From positions 1-28,487 of the IMG/VR virus record IMGVR_UViG_3300027865_000035: DNA of 28,487 nt; one strand, 5' to 3'. The DNA is from a virus. Under the pieces are notes generated by a model that was given only the letters and a program-made list of their open reading frames with translations, was not told where the DNA came from and ran no database searches. Below are positions 16,967 to 28,487 of this stretch, one piece after another. The translations under genes and the position numbers were made by a program. Numbering within the stretch: position 1 is the first letter of the stretch; every line of letters starts with the position of its first letter.

Positions 16967-18169
16967 TTATTCCTCCTTTTTGTCATGACCAAGTGCGGTA
17001 ACTCCGCTCTTAATCTCATCCATCTTTTTTAACGCTTCTCCGAGTTTAATATCTTCATCTATTTCTTTTTCAAGTTTTTCTATTGCATTATCCAACTCTT
17101 TTTCTTGATCTTGCATTTCTTTACGCACTTTTAAATCATCAAGCCGATCTTTTTTCGCTTCAAGTCTTTGTGTTGTATCGTCAATTATTTCTTGCTCTGT
17201 ATTATCTTCCCAATCAGTCTTGAGTTTTATTTCTTCCTTCTTTTCTTCTCCTTGTTCAGGCTCTTCCTTTTTTTTATCTGATTCTTCAAATCGTATATCT
17301 TCAGCTTTATGTAATTGAATATCGCCATCTTTACCTCCATGAGTTTTGACAAAGCTTTTCTGTACAAAATCAAGATATGTAGCTGATTTCAATGCCTCTG
17401 GATTAGCCGGTATGTTTACCGCCGATATTTCAAGTAATTCCCATTGTTTAAATTCTCTACCAAGCCTTTCAAATGGATCAGGATTCTTTTCTTCTGACGG
17501 TAACACCTCAAATTTGATTGGATCAAACCGTATAGAGAATGCCCGCAAGAATCCACCTTTAAACATCTTGAATACCTGATCAGCAAACGGATTCATATCA
17601 GATGTGGCAAATTTTGGTTTAAAAAGAAGTTTATCACCATCAACACGGATATCGGTTGCCTTTGCAACAGGTAAAGACCTATCATCATGACCAAATAATA
17701 CAACAGGATTCTTCCTAAAATTCTTTAATTTCGCACCAGATACCCTCATTATATCGCCATCACGATCTTTTGTTTCAGTTGATGCAATTGCAGTGAATGT
17801 ACGCTCCTTTTCATTAAAATCTTTTAACTCACAATCATATAACTTTGTTACAGGCTTCATTTCGTACTCCTTCCCTTCAGATAAATTTATTGTCGTGTTT
17901 TTACCCATCAACCATCCAAGCGAATCAGTATCTTTTGCTTGAGAAAATATCCATTCATAATGTTTTGCGTTTTCTTTTACCCATTTTCTTATTTCATCTA
18001 ACTTCCATTTGGATTTATCAAATACAAATGATTCAATAACCGAATGGTTGTGTGGATCAGATTTTAGTTTACCAATAACAGCTTTTATACCCTTATCTTC
18101 AATCCCAATAGTTACATATTTTATTGAATCTTCAATAAATAAATCATTTTGTCTTATTCTTATCTTCAT
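16967..18169 (-). CDS. Prohead protease (S78-type) with scaffold-like C-terminal coil
   Basis: A 400-aa protein. Residues 1-105 form an N-terminal domain (IGIEDKGIKAVIGKLKSD, FDKSKWKLDEIRKWVKE) often found ahead of phage proteases. The protease domain runs from ~105 to 270. His161 lies in NPVVLFGHDD and Ser212 in LRAFSIRF, the two recognisable catalytic residues; ELLEISAVNIPANPEA is the conserved end of the fold. Residues ~285-400 are a long acidic-basic coiled coil (DDLKVRKEMQDQEKELDNAI), probably a built-in scaffold. The capsid protein also carries a coiled delta domain, so the two may co-assemble. The start overlaps the preceding Cys-rich gene by 26 bases. Confidence 0.9.
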   Translation of the reverse strand: MKIRIRQNDLFIEDSIKYVTIGIEDKGIKAVIGKLKSDPHNHSVIESFVFDKSKWKLDEIRKWVKENAKHYEWIFSQAKDTDSLGWLMGKNTTINLSEGKEYEMKPVTKLYDCELKDFNEKERTFTAIASTETKDRDGDIMRVSGAKLKNFRKNPVVLFGHDDRSLPVAKATDIRVDGDKLLFKPKFATSDMNPFADQVFKMFKGGFLRAFSIRFDPIKFEVLPSEEKNPDPFERLGREFKQWELLEISAVNIPANPEALKSATYLDFVQKSFVKTHGGKDGDIQLHKAEDIRFEESDKKKEEPEQGEEKKEEIKLKTDWEDNTEQEIIDDTTQRLEAKKDRLDDLKVRKEMQDQEKELDNAIEKLEKEIDEDIKLGEALKKMDEIKSGVTALGHDKKEE

Positions 18170-18320
18170 ATTTTATTTCAATACTTTCTGCGCATCTACT
18201 ATCTCTCGGTAACTGATAATCACAATATCTAGTGTAAGAACATATAAATCCTATTGTCGCCATTCCTCTATAACTACATTGATTTGATGCAGAACAAGTT
18301 TTTGTTAAAGTATCACTCAT
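18144..18320 (-). CDS. Cys-rich small protein, possible zinc-binding
   Basis: A 58-aa frame I read directly from the sequence: MSDTLTKTCSASNQCSYRGM, then GFICSYTRYCDYQLPRDSRC. Five cysteines fall at residues 9, 15, 27, 33 and 43, spaced like a small metal-binding knuckle. Similar C-x5-C…C-Y…R-x-C proteins occur in phages next to structural genes. It is placed between the portal-associated gene and the protease gene and overlaps the latter by 26 bases. Function unknown. Confidence 0.65.
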   Translation of the reverse strand: MSDTLTKTCSASNQCSYRGMATIGFICSYTRYCDYQLPRDSRCAESIEIKYEDKNKTK

Positions 18321-18494: not shown

Positions 18495-20654
18495 TCACGC
18501 ATCCTCATCAACAATCGGTATCAATGTACACCGACAATTTATATCTTCCGCAGCAGTCCCAATATTCCCAGGAGCTAATCCACTACCACCAGCTAAACTA
18601 AAGTTTTGATCTAACGGTATCGCACCCTTCTCATCGTATGTTGTCCCTGCTTGTAAATGTGATTCCCTTAATCGATCATCAAACTCCGGCAACCATTGCT
18701 TTTTCTTGACTACACCTGACTGTTTATACGATTCTAAGGCACCAAAATTGCTTGTACCGATAACCTCTGTCCTGGCTATACGTTCAGCCTTAAAAGCATC
18801 GTTTTTGTAGCCCACAAAGACGTTCTGTACCCTCTTGGTAAGCTCTGGTATGCCCTCACCAGCTGATACACCGGCCTGTAAAGCCTTTATAACGTCTGAT
18901 CGGGCTTGACCGATAACCTCTTTAGATTTCGTTAATCCATAAGTCTTAAGATATTTGATAACTCTCGGATTGCTTACATCAAATGCCTGATCAATTCCTA
19001 AATTGCGTAATTCACGCTGACCATTTGACCTTACTGACGCTGTATGTACCCTTGTTGAGGTATTAAACCACCGCTTTTCAGTAGAATCTTCATCCCATAA
19101 GAATATACTTACCTTCGGCGGTGCTTTTACATAATCTTTTTTGTTATTTAACCGCATAATAACACCCAACTCAAGCTGAAAAAAGAATTTATCGATTATC
19201 CCCATATATGCATTCATTACTGCCTGTGTTAATCGATCAAATTGTTTCCATAAAAATAGTTTTTGTTCTTTTGTATGAATACGTGTTTTCTTTACTGATT
19301 TTTCATCATCATCTTCACCGGCATCCTCATCTTCATCTTCTTCTACCGGCAATCCTGGTGCTGGCTCTGGCTCTGGCGGATTAACAACTGTCTCAATTGG
19401 TGCTATACTAAATGGCACAAGCCCAACATCCCCACCTTCAACCGGCTCAAACGGTAGATGCATTTTATCGATTATATCGTTAATCGGGATACCCATACCC
19501 CAATACGTTTTAGCAATCTCAGATTTTTCTTTTTCATCATCTCGTAATGCGGTTATATCAGATAAATCAAACTCAAAGAATAGATTTTTATCAAATAATT
19601 GTACAACCTTAGTAATAACTTCTTCCATACGATGTGTCTTAGGCACAATATTAAAGTTATAGAATACCTTCGTTGCTTCCTCAAAATTGCTATACGATGC
19701 ATTATCAAGTATGCCCACAAGCATCGGCGGTACACCGAATGCAGCGCATATTTCTTCTCTCGTAAGCTTTAATCCGTTGATATATTCCAAATCTTTAAGC
19801 GTTGACATAATCGCTTTATATTTCAATCCTTTAGTCAATACAGCGGTTTGATGCGCTCTCGTAAATGTACCGTATTTACTATTAAATTGTGAATCTAACC
19901 GTCTCCATAAATCGTCACCTAACTCTTGATCAGTTTCAAGAACCGCATCAAGTTTCGCACCATTTTCAAATATCTTTAAATTAGTGTTTTGCGCATATTT
20001 GTGAGTGGTATTCGATGTCCTTGATGCGGTTACAGAGCCTTGACCATATAATCTAGTCATTGACGACATATACTTAAAATGTGTTATTTCTTCAGGTGTA
20101 AAATCAATTTTTGAACTATCATTACGAATATATTTATATCCTTCAACAACTCTATCCCTAACCGTTTTACCACCAACAACACGCATCCGCCATCCATCAA
20201 GCATTTGTATCGATTTCGGTCTACCACCGACCAATTCATCAAGTAACCAGTATGCATTCCCGATTAAATCAAGTGATGCCGATGTCCATTCAATAAGATT
20301 AAAGAATGTAGAATTTTCATCATTACTATTTGGTTTATGAAACAAATCTTCGACGATTTTATTGTTTACTTGTACTTTTTCACCATTAGCATTTTTCTTA
20401 AATAATCTCCACGGTAATTGTGCAATCGTTGTCGCATTGAGATATGTGCAAGCATATACCCATACAGAATTAGAATACTGTGCTAAATAATTACGGTAAT
20501 TCTCTGGAAGATTCTCACCTAATGGATCAAAGAATGGTGCAGAAAACTTATTCTCGAATGTTTCACCGATACGTCTTGCCTTTTCATTAGCTTCGTTCAA
20601 TTGCTGAACTGTTGCTATGCCAAACGTATTTAAAATTCTTTGTTTTAAGCTCAC
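18495..20654 (-). CDS. Portal protein fused to MuF-like head morphogenesis domain
   Basis: A 719-aa protein with a GTG start preceded by GGAGGTTAAAGG. Residues ~30-400 are an HK97-type portal: NSVWVYACTYLNATTIAQLP, WTSASLDLIGNAYWLLDE, TPEEITHFKYMS, LTREEICAAFGVPPMLVGIL. A Pro/Glu and acidic linker follows (PEPEPAPGLPVEEDEDEDAG). The last ~230 residues are a MuF/SPP1 gp7-like domain with the usual landmarks: RIARTEVIGTSNFGALE (ARTE near 627), KQWLPEFDDRLRESH with R…H, and EDINCRCTLIP near 706-709. MuF domains enter the head and sit at the portal. In most phages they are a separate gene; here one chain does both jobs. Confidence 0.9.
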   Translation of the reverse strand: MSLKQRILNTFGIATVQQLNEANEKARRIGETFENKFSAPFFDPLGENLPENYRNYLAQYSNSVWVYACTYLNATTIAQLPWRLFKKNANGEKVQVNNKIVEDLFHKPNSNDENSTFFNLIEWTSASLDLIGNAYWLLDELVGGRPKSIQMLDGWRMRVVGGKTVRDRVVEGYKYIRNDSSKIDFTPEEITHFKYMSSMTRLYGQGSVTASRTSNTTHKYAQNTNLKIFENGAKLDAVLETDQELGDDLWRRLDSQFNSKYGTFTRAHQTAVLTKGLKYKAIMSTLKDLEYINGLKLTREEICAAFGVPPMLVGILDNASYSNFEEATKVFYNFNIVPKTHRMEEVITKVVQLFDKNLFFEFDLSDITALRDDEKEKSEIAKTYWGMGIPINDIIDKMHLPFEPVEGGDVGLVPFSIAPIETVVNPPEPEPAPGLPVEEDEDEDAGEDDDEKSVKKTRIHTKEQKLFLWKQFDRLTQAVMNAYMGIIDKFFFQLELGVIMRLNNKKDYVKAPPKVSIFLWDEDSTEKRWFNTSTRVHTASVRSNGQRELRNLGIDQAFDVSNPRVIKYLKTYGLTKSKEVIGQARSDVIKALQAGVSAGEGIPELTKRVQNVFVGYKNDAFKAERIARTEVIGTSNFGALESYKQSGVVKKKQWLPEFDDRLRESHLQAGTTYDEKGAIPLDQNFSLAGGSGLAPGNIGTAAEDINCRCTLIPIVDEDA

Positions 20655-20830
20655 CCTTTAACCTCCGATTTATTCGGTATCATTTCACAATTAATTATAG
20701 CAACAATCGATACATCATATTCTTCAACATGAACCATCATTATTTTTTCTAATTCATGTTTAATCTGAAACTTCTTTTTCTTAAATTCTTCGTTTTTATC
20801 TTGTCCTGCTAACGCACCTGTTAAAACCAT
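20651..20830 (-). CDS. Small protein between terL and portal
   Basis: A 59-aa frame, MVLTGALAGQDKNEEFKKKK then HELEKIMMVHVEEYDVSI, ending MIPNKSEVKG. Its ATG overlaps the terL stop by ten bases and its stop overlaps the portal GTG (GTGA), which is strong operon evidence. GGAGG lies just before the start. The protein is charged and helical. Function unknown. Confidence 0.65.
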   Translation of the reverse strand: MVLTGALAGQDKNEEFKKKKFQIKHELEKIMMVHVEEYDVSIVAIINCEMIPNKSEVKG

Positions 20831-22038
20831 AATACCTCCGGCTTAGAATATTTATGATGTGTATAAATACCATATCGACCAGCATCACAAGCATGATCAT
20901 TTAATTTTACCGGCTCATCCATCGATTTACCCTCTTTATCTAATCGCCATTTATATCTTTTCCAATCTTTGTTAAAATTCTCGTTTGCAATAACGGTGTG
21001 GATATTATACCGTTTGCAAAAATCAATCCCGAATTTAACCGAATCTTTTGCTTTATCAGCAGGCTTACAATTGAATTTAACCTTTTCACCGTTAATCTCT
21101 GTTTCCCTTGCAAGCTCCTCAATTCGTGCCGGCTCTGCACTATCGGCATACATATCACATTGTCGCTTATCTTTAGGTATCAACTGCGCAAACTTAGCCT
21201 TTAACTCGCTGTTAGTTAATCCTGATTGATATAACAACTCACGGATATATATCTCGTTATCTTTAAAATTAATCTCTAAAAGAACGCTAGGGTTATTAAA
21301 CCCAAAATCAACACCATAGATACTATAATCAAAGCTTTCAGGATATTCAGTCTCCATAACCAAAGGTTTGTATATTAAACCTTTGAAACTAGCCCGCTGT
21401 CCAAGCGTATAAATCTTATAATACGTCTCATCGATATTTTTATAATCTTCAAGTGTCTGAATATAATCTTGATTGGCAAACGGATTATCTTTGTAGTTTG
21501 AATAAATAAAACTAACATTTGGTTGCCCTTCAAGATCAAATATCCAGCAATCTTCAGGATTAAATGACATCCAGATTCTAGGTTTAAATCCAGGGTCTTT
21601 AATCCCTCGGAATAACCTTGTTTTAAGAAACAAATAATCGTGTAAAGAAAATTCATTTGCTTCTTCAAGCCAAATATCGTGCCATTCAGTAGATTTAATT
21701 TTTTCATGATCATCCAGTCCAGAGAATCGTGCTTGATTAGAACCGATATTATAAATCAAATCACTTTTATTATAGGCCTCACGATTAAAGATATTATATT
21801 CTTTTGTAGCATTAATGAAGTCTTGATGAACAGATAAATTATTTGATTGCCTGGTAAATCTTAATACCAGCAACTTATAATTTTGTTTGATCAATAACCT
21901 CTTAAAAAGAAAGAACTGTATTAATGAAAAACTTTTACTTGACCCCGCACCGCCAGCATTGACAATAGTTTGTTCAGTCGCATTTTCAATTTTCTCGAAT
22001 AACGGGGTTACCTTCACTTTGTTTATTTGCATATTCAA
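20821..22038 (-). CDS. terL: Terminase large subunit
   Basis: A 405-aa protein, ATPase plus nuclease of the packaging motor, of the Terminase_3/PBSX type. Walker A is GGAGSSKS (29-36), Walker B with catalytic Glu is IWLEEANEF (122-130), and the coupling segment is SFNPED (158-163). The nuclease acids are Asp244 in YGVDFGF, Asp299 in YADSAEP and the pair Asp381/Asp385 in NDHACDAGRYG. Length is typical. It overlaps the small subunit gene by 53 bases in another frame, and the first Met could be residue 1 or 3. Confidence 0.95.
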   Translation of the reverse strand: MNMQINKVKVTPLFEKIENATEQTIVNAGGAGSSKSFSLIQFFLFKRLLIKQNYKLLVLRFTRQSNNLSVHQDFINATKEYNIFNREAYNKSDLIYNIGSNQARFSGLDDHEKIKSTEWHDIWLEEANEFSLHDYLFLKTRLFRGIKDPGFKPRIWMSFNPEDCWIFDLEGQPNVSFIYSNYKDNPFANQDYIQTLEDYKNIDETYYKIYTLGQRASFKGLIYKPLVMETEYPESFDYSIYGVDFGFNNPSVLLEINFKDNEIYIRELLYQSGLTNSELKAKFAQLIPKDKRQCDMYADSAEPARIEELARETEINGEKVKFNCKPADKAKDSVKFGIDFCKRYNIHTVIANENFNKDWKRYKWRLDKEGKSMDEPVKLNDHACDAGRYGIYTHHKYSKPEVLWF

Positions 22039-22546
22039 TTATATATTTAATTGGATCATTTTTATCACCCGAATGTTCTACTCTTTCAGTAAATAGTTTT
22101 AAATGTTTCCCAAGCAATTCAAGAGAACGAACTTTATCACTCAATTTTATTTTCTTGGTATATCCTATTTTCTCACGTTCCCCACCACTACCTTCGTATA
22201 ATTCATTAACTTCAATTCCTCCTATCGCATGCGCAACATCTTCAGGAATATCGGATAAATCTCTAAGCATACCTTGTTCAGTAAACGCACCTCTAATATC
22301 TAAAAAAGCAATTTTTTTTAATTCGTTTATAACTTCATCGGCTTTTACAAGAGTACGTTTCTCTTGAAGTTCGATTTGATGCGTAATCTCTTGCTGAATA
22401 TTAGCATAGGTTAGCAGCCTACAACCATTAATAGCAGCACAATTTTTAGAATATCCAGCACGAATCATAGCTTGAGTCGCATTTTTATCAATAAGATACT
22501 CTAAAACGAATGATTTTTGTTTTGCTGTTAATTTCTTTTTTTCCAT
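21986..22546 (-). CDS. terS: Terminase small subunit
   Basis: A 186-aa protein. The N-terminal ~50 residues have LTAKQKSFVLEYLIDKNATQ, AMIRAGYSKNCAAINGCRLL and ANIQQEI, the helix-turn-helix start of Terminase_2 small subunits, which bind the packaging site. The middle has KADEVINELKKIAFLDIRGA, also typical. The ATG has no clear ribosome site: the bases upstream are the U-tract of a terminator hairpin (see below). Expression may therefore depend on an unusual leader. The C-terminus overlaps terL. Confidence 0.92.
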   Translation of the reverse strand: MEKKKLTAKQKSFVLEYLIDKNATQAMIRAGYSKNCAAINGCRLLTYANIQQEITHQIELQEKRTLVKADEVINELKKIAFLDIRGAFTEQGMLRDLSDIPEDVAHAIGGIEVNELYEGSGGEREKIGYTKKIKLSDKVRSLELLGKHLKLFTERVEHSGDKNDPIKYIIEYANKQSEGNPVIREN

Positions 22547-22552
22547 ATAAAT

Positions 22553-22583
22553 AAAAAAAGGCTATCTTTCGTAAAAGATAGCC
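22553..22583 (-). terminator. Intrinsic terminator directly upstream of terS
   Basis: On the minus strand GGCTATCTTT (22583-22574) and AAAGATAGCC (22569-22560) form a perfect 10-bp stem with a TACG loop, followed by seven T (22559-22553). The T-run ends six bases before the terS ATG. Confidence 0.9.
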
Positions 22584-22637
22584 GTAACCCCGTGTAGTAA
22601 ATATGCCAATGATGAAAATATAATCACTTCACCGCAT

Positions 22638-22665
22638 ATTATACTTATTATTTATTATTTGTCAA
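22638..22665 (-). promoter_or_regulatory. Perfect-consensus sigma70 promoter
   Basis: TTGACA (22665-22660), a 16-base AT-rich spacer and TATAAT (22643-22638), both hexamers exact. Transcription should start near 22631 and meet the intrinsic terminator about 50 bases later, before terS. Confidence 0.85.
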
Positions 22666-24537: not shown

Positions 24538-24903
24538 TTAAAACCCGTTCCCGTACCCGTTCCCGTTCCCGTTCCCGTACCCGTCCCCGTACCCGTTCCC
24601 GTACCCGTCCCCGTACCCGTACCCGTTCCCGTACCCGTACCCGTCCCCGTTCCCGTTCCCGTTCCCGTTCCCGTACCCGTCCCCGTTCCCGTTCCCGTTT
24701 CCGTTCCCGTCCCCTTCCCCGTTCCCGTTCCCGTCCCCGTCCCCGTTCCCGTTCCCGTTCCCGTCCCCGTCCCCGTTCCCGTTCCCGTACCCGTTCCCGT
24801 CCCCGTCCCCGTTCCCGTTCCCGTTCCCGTACCCGTCCCCGTCCCCGTACCCGTTCCCGTAACTATTCTGATTTTCGTCGTAATTTATAGAATTTTTTGC
24901 CAT
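24538..24903 (-). CDS. Asn/Tyr/Asp-Gly dipeptide-repeat protein
   Basis: A 121-aa protein. [16 protein letters not shown] is followed by about 53 X-Gly dipeptides, X being Asn, Tyr or Asp (one Glu), to GNGF. The codons are AAC, TAC or GAC followed by GGG, so variation is confined to the first codon base. AAGGAG stands five bases ahead of the ATG and the start lies inside the end of the upstream gene, both good signs of translation. GYGDGNG-type low-complexity proteins occur in other phages and mobile elements, sometimes fused to or next to the WGTT-type protein that precedes it here. It has no predicted fold, would be acidic and flexible, and its role is unknown. The mRNA is very G-rich in regular triplets. 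Confidence 0.75.
24544..24861. repeat. 53-unit degenerate hexamer array CCCGTN
   Basis: Fifty-three head-to-tail hexamers CCCGTN on the plus strand. I counted the last base: T 26, A 13, C 14, G 0. Only two units deviate elsewhere (TCCGTT and CCCTTC). The minus strand is (GGGNAC)n. The array makes up most of the dipeptide-repeat gene. Confidence 0.97.
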
Positions 24904-28293: not shown

Positions 28294-28487
28294 ATCTCCT
28301 CCATTATCCCGACCTCGACCTCGACCTCGACCACGACCTCGACCTCGACCTCGACCTCGACCACGACCTCGACCCCGACCCCGACCACGACCTCGACCCC
28401 GACCCCGACCTCGACCCCAACACCGACCCCGACCCCGACCCCGACACCGACATCGACCTCGACAAAGAAACCTACAAAGCAATCGAA
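28290..28487 (-). CDS. Possible C-terminal part of an upstream gene encoded by the hexamer array
   Basis: A frame open from the window edge to a TGA that overlaps the beta-helix ATG (ATGA). It would read FDCFVGFF then Val-X repeats (X Glu, Gly or Val) and end VGIMEEI. The stop-start overlap matches the rest of the operon. The start lies outside the window and no ribosome site can be checked. The other minus frames read Ser-X (stops early) or Arg-Gly (runs into the beta-helix gene). Confidence 0.3.
   Translation of the reverse strand, partial: FDCFVGFFVEVDVGVGVGVGVGVGVEVGVGVEVVVGVGVEVVVEVEVEVEVVVEVEVEVGIMEEI
28296..28302 (-). promoter_or_regulatory. Ribosome site of the beta-helix gene
   Basis: GGAGGAG lies two to three bases ahead of the ATG at 28293. 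It supports this start over an upstream in-frame extension through the hexamer array. Confidence 0.75.
28310..28459. repeat. 25-unit degenerate hexamer array CGACCN
   Basis: Twenty-five head-to-tail hexamers of the form CGACCN on the plus strand, with decaying units to about 28465. I counted the last base: T 12, A 3, C 10, G 0. Three units deviate elsewhere (CAACAC, CGACAC and CGACAT). It lies upstream of the beta-helix gene and runs toward the window edge. Confidence 0.95.

What the first reader, a model, noticed from the sequence alone, without database searches (positions are those of the whole stretch)
22553..22665. Consensus promoter feeding straight into a terminator in front of terS
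An exact TTGACA-16-TATAAT promoter would start RNA near 22631. A perfect 10-bp hairpin with seven U ends it near 22553, giving an RNA of about 79 bases. Either it is a small phage RNA, or a leader in which termination is relieved (antitermination or attenuation) to switch on the packaging and structural genes. The terminator could also insulate terS from upstream transcripts.
Basis: partly seen in the sequence, partly recalled or inferred. Interest (0 to 1): 0.75.

Follow-up and report, generated by a model that had tools for sequence, protein, structure and literature searches.

The report
Late phage promoter blocked by terminator
A perfect promoter in this uncultivated phage runs into a strong transcription stop just before the first DNA-packaging gene, and most of its relatives keep the same layout with different sequences, so it looks like an on/off switch for the late genes of the kind known from phage lambda.

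Summary
On the minus strand, TTGACA-16-TATAAT (22665-22638) is the only 12/12 promoter in the window (about 0.05-0.07 expected), and the 10-bp hairpin plus U7 (22583-22553) is its only strong terminator. They lie 54 bp apart; the U-run ends 6 bp before the terS start codon.

The layout is not an accident of one contig. In the clade sharing this portal protein (about 45% identity or more), 6 of 7 independent phages have promoter, terminator, first packaging gene, against 1 of 113 other upstream regions. Leaders cannot be aligned with one another except for one close pair. Other relatives put the same kind of promoter directly on terS, without a terminator. Two relatives keep a second, covarying terminator further down the late operon.

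Best reading: a conditional late promoter, working like lambda pR'-tR', whose transcript stops as a roughly 79-nt RNA until an antitermination event lets polymerase into the packaging and structural genes. No Q-family protein was found, and neither a Q-binding nor a pause element could be established, so it is not filed as a lambdoid Q system. An RNA-borne antiterminator, an autonomous small RNA and simple insulation remain open. No transcript data exist. Interest is moderate.

The parts
22660..22665 (-). -35 box TTGACA of the promoter
22644..22659 (-). 16-nt spacer AATAATAAATAATAAG
22638..22643 (-). -10 box TATAAT
22584..22631 (-). Predicted transcribed leader from the inferred start (about 22631) to the hairpin; no alignable homologue in relatives
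   Evidence: start inferred from the -10 box
22560..22583 (-). Terminator hairpin, 10 perfect pairs, 4-nt loop
22553..22559 (-). U7 tract of the terminator; predicted 3' end of a roughly 79-nt RNA
21986..22546 (-). terS, terminase small subunit, first gene behind the terminator, no Shine-Dalgarno sequence
   Evidence: PF03592 E 5.7e-38
20821..22038 (-). terL, terminase large subunit, second gene of the presumed late operon
   Evidence: PF04466 E 2.3e-31
18495..20654 (-). Portal protein, used to define the clade
   Evidence: PF04860
22674..23009 (-). 111-aa ORF ending 8 bp before the -35 box; a homologue lies upstream of terS in L001; untested candidate regulator
   Evidence: no family match

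Best explanation
This is the conditional late promoter of a phage. Host RNA polymerase starts at the consensus promoter (about 22631) but by default stops at the hairpin-U7 terminator about 79 nt later, releasing a short by-product RNA and leaving terS and the genes behind it off. Late in infection, polymerase started here becomes terminator-resistant, through a phage protein loaded at the promoter or through the leader RNA itself. It then reads through into terS, terL, portal and the rest of the co-directional late operon. It works like lambda pR'-tR' under Q. Shown: the sequence elements, their significance, the conserved layout with drifting sequence, the promoter's link to terS in terminator-less relatives, and a second covarying terminator in two relatives' late operons. 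Inferred: promoter activity, termination, the existence and identity of the antitermination factor, and the timing.
For: Only 12/12 promoter and only strong terminator of the window, 54 bp apart, directly before terS; 0/2000 shuffles reproduce the pair. Same layout in the portal clade: L001 (TTGACA-17-TATACA), L017 (TTGACA-17-TATAAT, 19-bp stem), L018/L019 (TTGACT-16-TATAAT, 13-bp stem), L021 (TTGACG-17-TAAAAT), each with the first packaging gene starting 13-21 bp after the hairpin, and L042 (TTGACA with a weak -10 box; hairpin 75 bp before terS). Absent only in L043; 6/7 versus 1/113 other upstream regions, Fisher 1e-8 without correction for relatedness. Leader sequences are unrelated except L001/L017, so selection is on the layout. 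L002/L003, L044 and L045 have a TTGACA promoter with the -10 box 6-11 bp before terS and no terminator, so the promoter serves terS. A second strong terminator with compensating arm changes lies before the capsid protease gene in L001 and L019/L020; the late operon there must cross at least two terminators, as expected for processive antitermination. The L001 phage carries repressor-like and integrase-like genes (read from the translations without a profile search), so silencing of a strong late promoter would be needed in a lysogen.
Against: No Q-like or other antiterminator was found upstream in the window or in L001, L017, L018 or L021. No conserved pause element or Q-binding site was demonstrated; the spacers of L001 and L017 match at 3 of 17 positions although their leaders are 81% identical. 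Terminator efficiency and promoter activity are unmeasured. The second terminator is absent from the window itself. Terminator-less relatives show that the terminator is not indispensable.
Confidence: 0.57

Rival explanations
1. Autonomous small RNA gene: promoter and terminator make a stand-alone 79-nt phage RNA with its own target, and terS is transcribed mainly from elsewhere.
For: A complete promoter-leader-terminator unit of sRNA size; the leader and hairpin base are conserved between L001 and L017 although the downstream first genes differ.
Against: No sequence conservation across the clade beyond that pair; no Rfam match; complementarity of the leader to the phage's own transcripts is at chance level; in L002, L044 and L045 the promoter drives terS directly.
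Confidence: 0.12
2. Leader-RNA switch: the terminator is relieved by an alternative RNA structure, a bound ligand or protein, or ribosome movement in the leader (attenuation), acting only on this terminator.
For: The conserved part of L001/L017 is the transcribed leader rather than the promoter spacer.
Against: The window leader has almost no structure besides the terminator and no evident anti-terminator pairing; leader ORFs are unrelated between members and lack real ribosome sites; a local switch would not deal with the second terminator of L001 and L019.
Confidence: 0.13
3. Insulator or fixed attenuator: the terminator only shields terS from upstream transcription or sets a constant low read-through from the promoter, with no switch.
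For: Upstream genes are co-directional, so shielding occurs in any case; U7 with a 10-bp AT-rich stem (4 G-C pairs) may leak.
Against: An insulator would be expected upstream of the promoter, not downstream; a perfect-consensus promoter paired with constant termination is wasteful yet kept in 6 of 7 clade members.
Confidence: 0.14
4. Chance: promoter-like and terminator-like strings without function.
For: The DNA is AT-rich, and the general promoter scan finds no excess of weak matches.
Against: 12/12 promoter expected 0.05-0.07 times per window; pair in 0/2000 shuffles; recurrence in the clade.
Confidence: 0.04

Closest known systems
Lambdoid late control: pR'-tR' with antiterminator Q (lambda, 21, 82)
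   Same: Strong sigma-70-type promoter, short leader, intrinsic terminator, then a long late operon; the default product is a short RNA; late genes come on only after read-through.
   Different: No Q homologue found; the terminator abuts terS rather than the lysis genes; leader about 79 nt; no demonstrated Q-binding element or pause site; host unknown.
Pseudomonas phage phi297 late region (NC_016762)
   Same: Homologous terS (44%); an annotated intrinsic terminator between an upstream gene with a weak Q-like match (phrog_304, E 0.0019) and the holin-terS-terL operon.
   Different: Lysis genes lie between terminator and terS; the scan found no promoter of scored quality before the terminator.
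Pseudomonas phage YA3 late promoter PP4 and terminator tRf10 (PMC7326022)
   Same: Predicted late promoter followed by a Rho-independent terminator, interpreted by its authors as pR'-tR'-like.
   Different: A recognisable Q protein is present and the terminator is 224 nt from the promoter.
RNA-only processive antiterminators put (HK022), EAR and canT (Tn916)
   Same: Element in the nascent RNA between promoter and terminator that lets polymerase pass downstream terminators (PMC11658703).
   Different: No shared structure or Rfam match; the leader is short and almost unstructured apart from the terminator.
cabRNA of staphylococcal phages
   Same: Structured RNA from the terminase region of phages (PMC10686824).
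   Different: cabRNAs arise inside terS/terL and depend on TerS; this RNA lies upstream of terS with its own promoter and terminator.

Membership tests
Lambdoid Q-dependent late antitermination | Sigma-70-type late promoter followed by an intrinsic terminator ahead of the late operon | tested here: met
   same layout in the clade
Lambdoid Q-dependent late antitermination | Q antiterminator gene, normally just upstream of the promoter | tested here: not met
   No Pfam or PHROG antiterminator match for upstream ORFs of the window, L001, L017, L018, L021; lambda Q as control is found. Q families can share no sequence similarity (PMC6606751), so an unrelated Q remains possible. Two AlphaFold models were too poor to use.
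Lambdoid Q-dependent late antitermination | Q-binding element between -35 and -10 | tested here: inconclusive
   The window spacer is a low-complexity 7-bp direct repeat; spacers are not conserved between L001 and L017.
Lambdoid Q-dependent late antitermination | -10-like pause element in the initial transcribed region | tested here: inconclusive
   By inspection: -10-like strings near +7 in the window and +2 in L001 and L017, not consistently in L018 and L021; AT-rich sequence gives them by chance.
Lambdoid Q-dependent late antitermination | Factor-dependent read-through of the terminator | not testable with these tools
   Needs transcription assays.
RNA-only processive antitermination (put, EAR, canT) | Conserved structured RNA element between promoter and terminator | tested here: inconclusive
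   Conserved only within the close pair L001/L017; no Rfam match.
Autonomous small RNA gene | RNA sequence conserved in relatives that keep the locus | tested here: not met
   Leaders unalignable except L001/L017.
Riboswitch or known cis-regulatory leader | Match to a curated RNA family | tested here: not met
   No Rfam 15 family at gathering threshold in the window or nine relatives.
Peptide-coded attenuator | Conserved leader ORF with a ribosome-binding site | tested here: not met
   Leader ORFs differ in every member; the only strong SD value (L001) precedes a TTG and is formed by the terminator stem itself.
cabRNA | RNA derived from within terS or the terS-terL boundary | tested here: not met
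   The RNA lies upstream of terS (definition).

The most novel reading that the evidence does not exclude
The clade uses a processive antitermination system of an undescribed kind, either a new small phage protein family unrelated to Q, N and P7 or a leader RNA that itself modifies polymerase, to open a terminator placed directly on the terminase gene and, in some members, a second terminator before the capsid genes.
Probability: 0.25. Interest if true: 0.62.

Novelty: new member of a known kind. Interest (0 to 1): 0.42.

Why it matters
If right, the late switch of a whole uncultivated phage clade is located to about 110 bp, and its default-off logic can be tested with a simple promoter-leader-terminator reporter. 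Because no known antiterminator family is detectable next to it, the locus is a defined handle for finding one: any phage gene that raises read-through of this terminator is the factor. It would also show how widely the lambda-type promoter-plus-terminator solution recurs outside the model phages, here placed on the terminase gene itself.

Tried and rejected
Rfam at gathering and relaxed thresholds: nothing credible; the best relaxed match, RAGATH-22 at 22 bits against a gathering score of 120, is chance. A pattern search for the L001/L017 hairpin in viral contigs gave one further hit, L119, inside a long open reading frame of an unrelated phage: coincidence. Leader-peptide attenuation rejected: leader ORFs are unrelated and lack real ribosome sites. 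A search for a Q-like protein by Pfam and PHROGs and by structure prediction of two upstream ORFs (mean pLDDT 44 and 51) gave nothing; fold searches were not run on such poor models. Prophages in sequenced genomes: the two genome scans found no close relative. No close relative among isolated phages. Antisense targets of the RNA: at chance level. terS-family loci outside the clade: no promoter-terminator pair.

Full report
What is there. The window is an IMG/VR virus record of 28,487 bp whose structural genes lie on the minus strand. terS (21986-22546), terL, portal and capsid are confirmed by Pfam. Upstream of terS, on the same strand, the sequence reads TTGACA-16-TATAAT (22665-22638), 54 bp to a perfect 10-bp hairpin (22583-22560), T7 and, 6 bp later, the terS ATG. 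The promoter is the only exact 12/12 match in the window on either strand (expected 0.05-0.07), and the hairpin is the only strong terminator found. terS has no Shine-Dalgarno sequence (dG -0.6 kcal/mol), although many other genes of the phage have strong ones.

Relatives. terS searches of viral contigs brought in L001 (terS 72%), L002/L003 (63%), L008 and L009, then L017-L022 came by portal and L042-L049 by terL. In the clade sharing this portal at about 45% identity or more, six of seven independent phages have the same order: promoter, 14-54 bp, intrinsic terminator, first packaging gene. They are the window, L001, L017, L018 (same as L019), L021 and L042. In the first five the gene starts 13-21 bp after the hairpin. 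In L042 the contig begins at the promoter, the -10 box is weak, and terS starts 75 bp after the hairpin, behind a very short ORF. The terminators fold far better than shuffles. L043 lacks the pair. Outside the clade the pair occurs in 1 of 113 distinct upstream regions (L048), Fisher p about 1e-8, or 5e-7 against AT-rich loci only; clade members are related, so these p-values overstate independence. Shuffling each upstream region never gave the pair in 2000 trials.

Layout conserved, sequence not. Leaders between the -10 box and the hairpin are not alignable between members, except L001 with L017. L001 and L017 have different first genes (terS versus a 70-aa ORF preceding another terS) yet share the leader and hairpin base. 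Their promoter spacers match at only 3 of 17 positions. This can mean that the useful signal is in the RNA, or that a recombination joint lies at the -10 box, so that a DNA-binding factor and its site were exchanged together. The data do not decide between these.

What the promoter is for. In L002/L003, L044 and L045, relatives by terS or terL, a TTGACA promoter lies with its -10 box 6-11 bp before the terS start, and no terminator intervenes. The promoter's ordinary target is therefore terS, and the terminator is an addition between promoter and target. That is the main argument for conditional read-through over a free-standing small RNA or an insulator.

Second terminator. L001 (6833-6873) and L019/L020 (5772-5815 in L019) carry another strong terminator just before the capsid protease gene, with compensating changes in its arms and no good promoter next to it. 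Transcription of the capsid and tail genes from the terS promoter must pass both terminators in these phages, which fits processive antitermination. The window itself has no such second site.

Mechanism. The best-supported model is a lambda pR'-tR'-like late switch: constant initiation, default termination after about 79 nt, and read-through once polymerase has been made terminator-resistant. The L001 phage appears temperate: its translations include a helix-turn-helix repressor-like protein and an integrase-like protein (judged by eye, no profile search was run on these two), which makes a default-off late promoter plausible. The factor is unknown. No antiterminator family matched the ORFs upstream, although lambda Q is found by the same search. 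Q proteins of different phages can lack sequence similarity (PMC6606751). RNA-only antiterminators exist (PMC11658703).

Comparison. It works like lambda pR'-tR'. It is not filed as a Q system, because the Q gene was sought and not found and the Q-binding and pause elements are inconclusive. Phage phi297, with a homologous terS, has an annotated terminator between a weakly Q-like gene and the holin-terS operon, and YA3 has a predicted promoter-terminator pair with a recognisable Q (PMC7326022). The general kind is known; this is a new clade of it, with the terminator placed on the terminase gene.

Limits. There are no transcripts, the host is unknown, the number of relatives is small, and the contigs are fragments. 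Promoter activity and termination rest on consensus and folding.

Noticed in passing
L001:6833-6873, L019:5772-5815, L020:2912-2955: Second strong intrinsic terminator with covarying arms immediately before the capsid protease gene, inside the late operon, without a good promoter.
   Followed up: partly
window 22546; L001:2462; L017:539; L021:960: The first packaging gene starts shortly after the terminator's U-run with no Shine-Dalgarno sequence, although many other genes in the window have strong ones; how it is translated is unexplained.
   Followed up: partly
L044:100-200 and L045:3134-3215: Shared GC-rich hairpin CCCGGCTG...CAGCCGGG just upstream of a near-leaderless terS promoter in two related phages.
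   Followed up: no
window 24544-24860 and 28310-28463: Hexanucleotide tandem arrays (CCCGTT)n and (CGACCT)n inside open reading frames, giving Gly-Asn/Asp-rich and Arg-Gly-rich repeats.
   Followed up: no
window 18144-18320 (-) and L001:163-360: The same small Cys-rich protein (60% identity over 38 aa) sits downstream of the portal in the window but upstream of terS in L001.
   Followed up: no
L002:4682-7666: terL reading frame of 994 aa that appears, from its sequence, to carry two intein-like insertions.
   Followed up: no
L017:539-751, L018:1368-1583: A conserved 70-71-aa protein of unknown function is the first gene after the terminator, before a different terS type.
   Followed up: no
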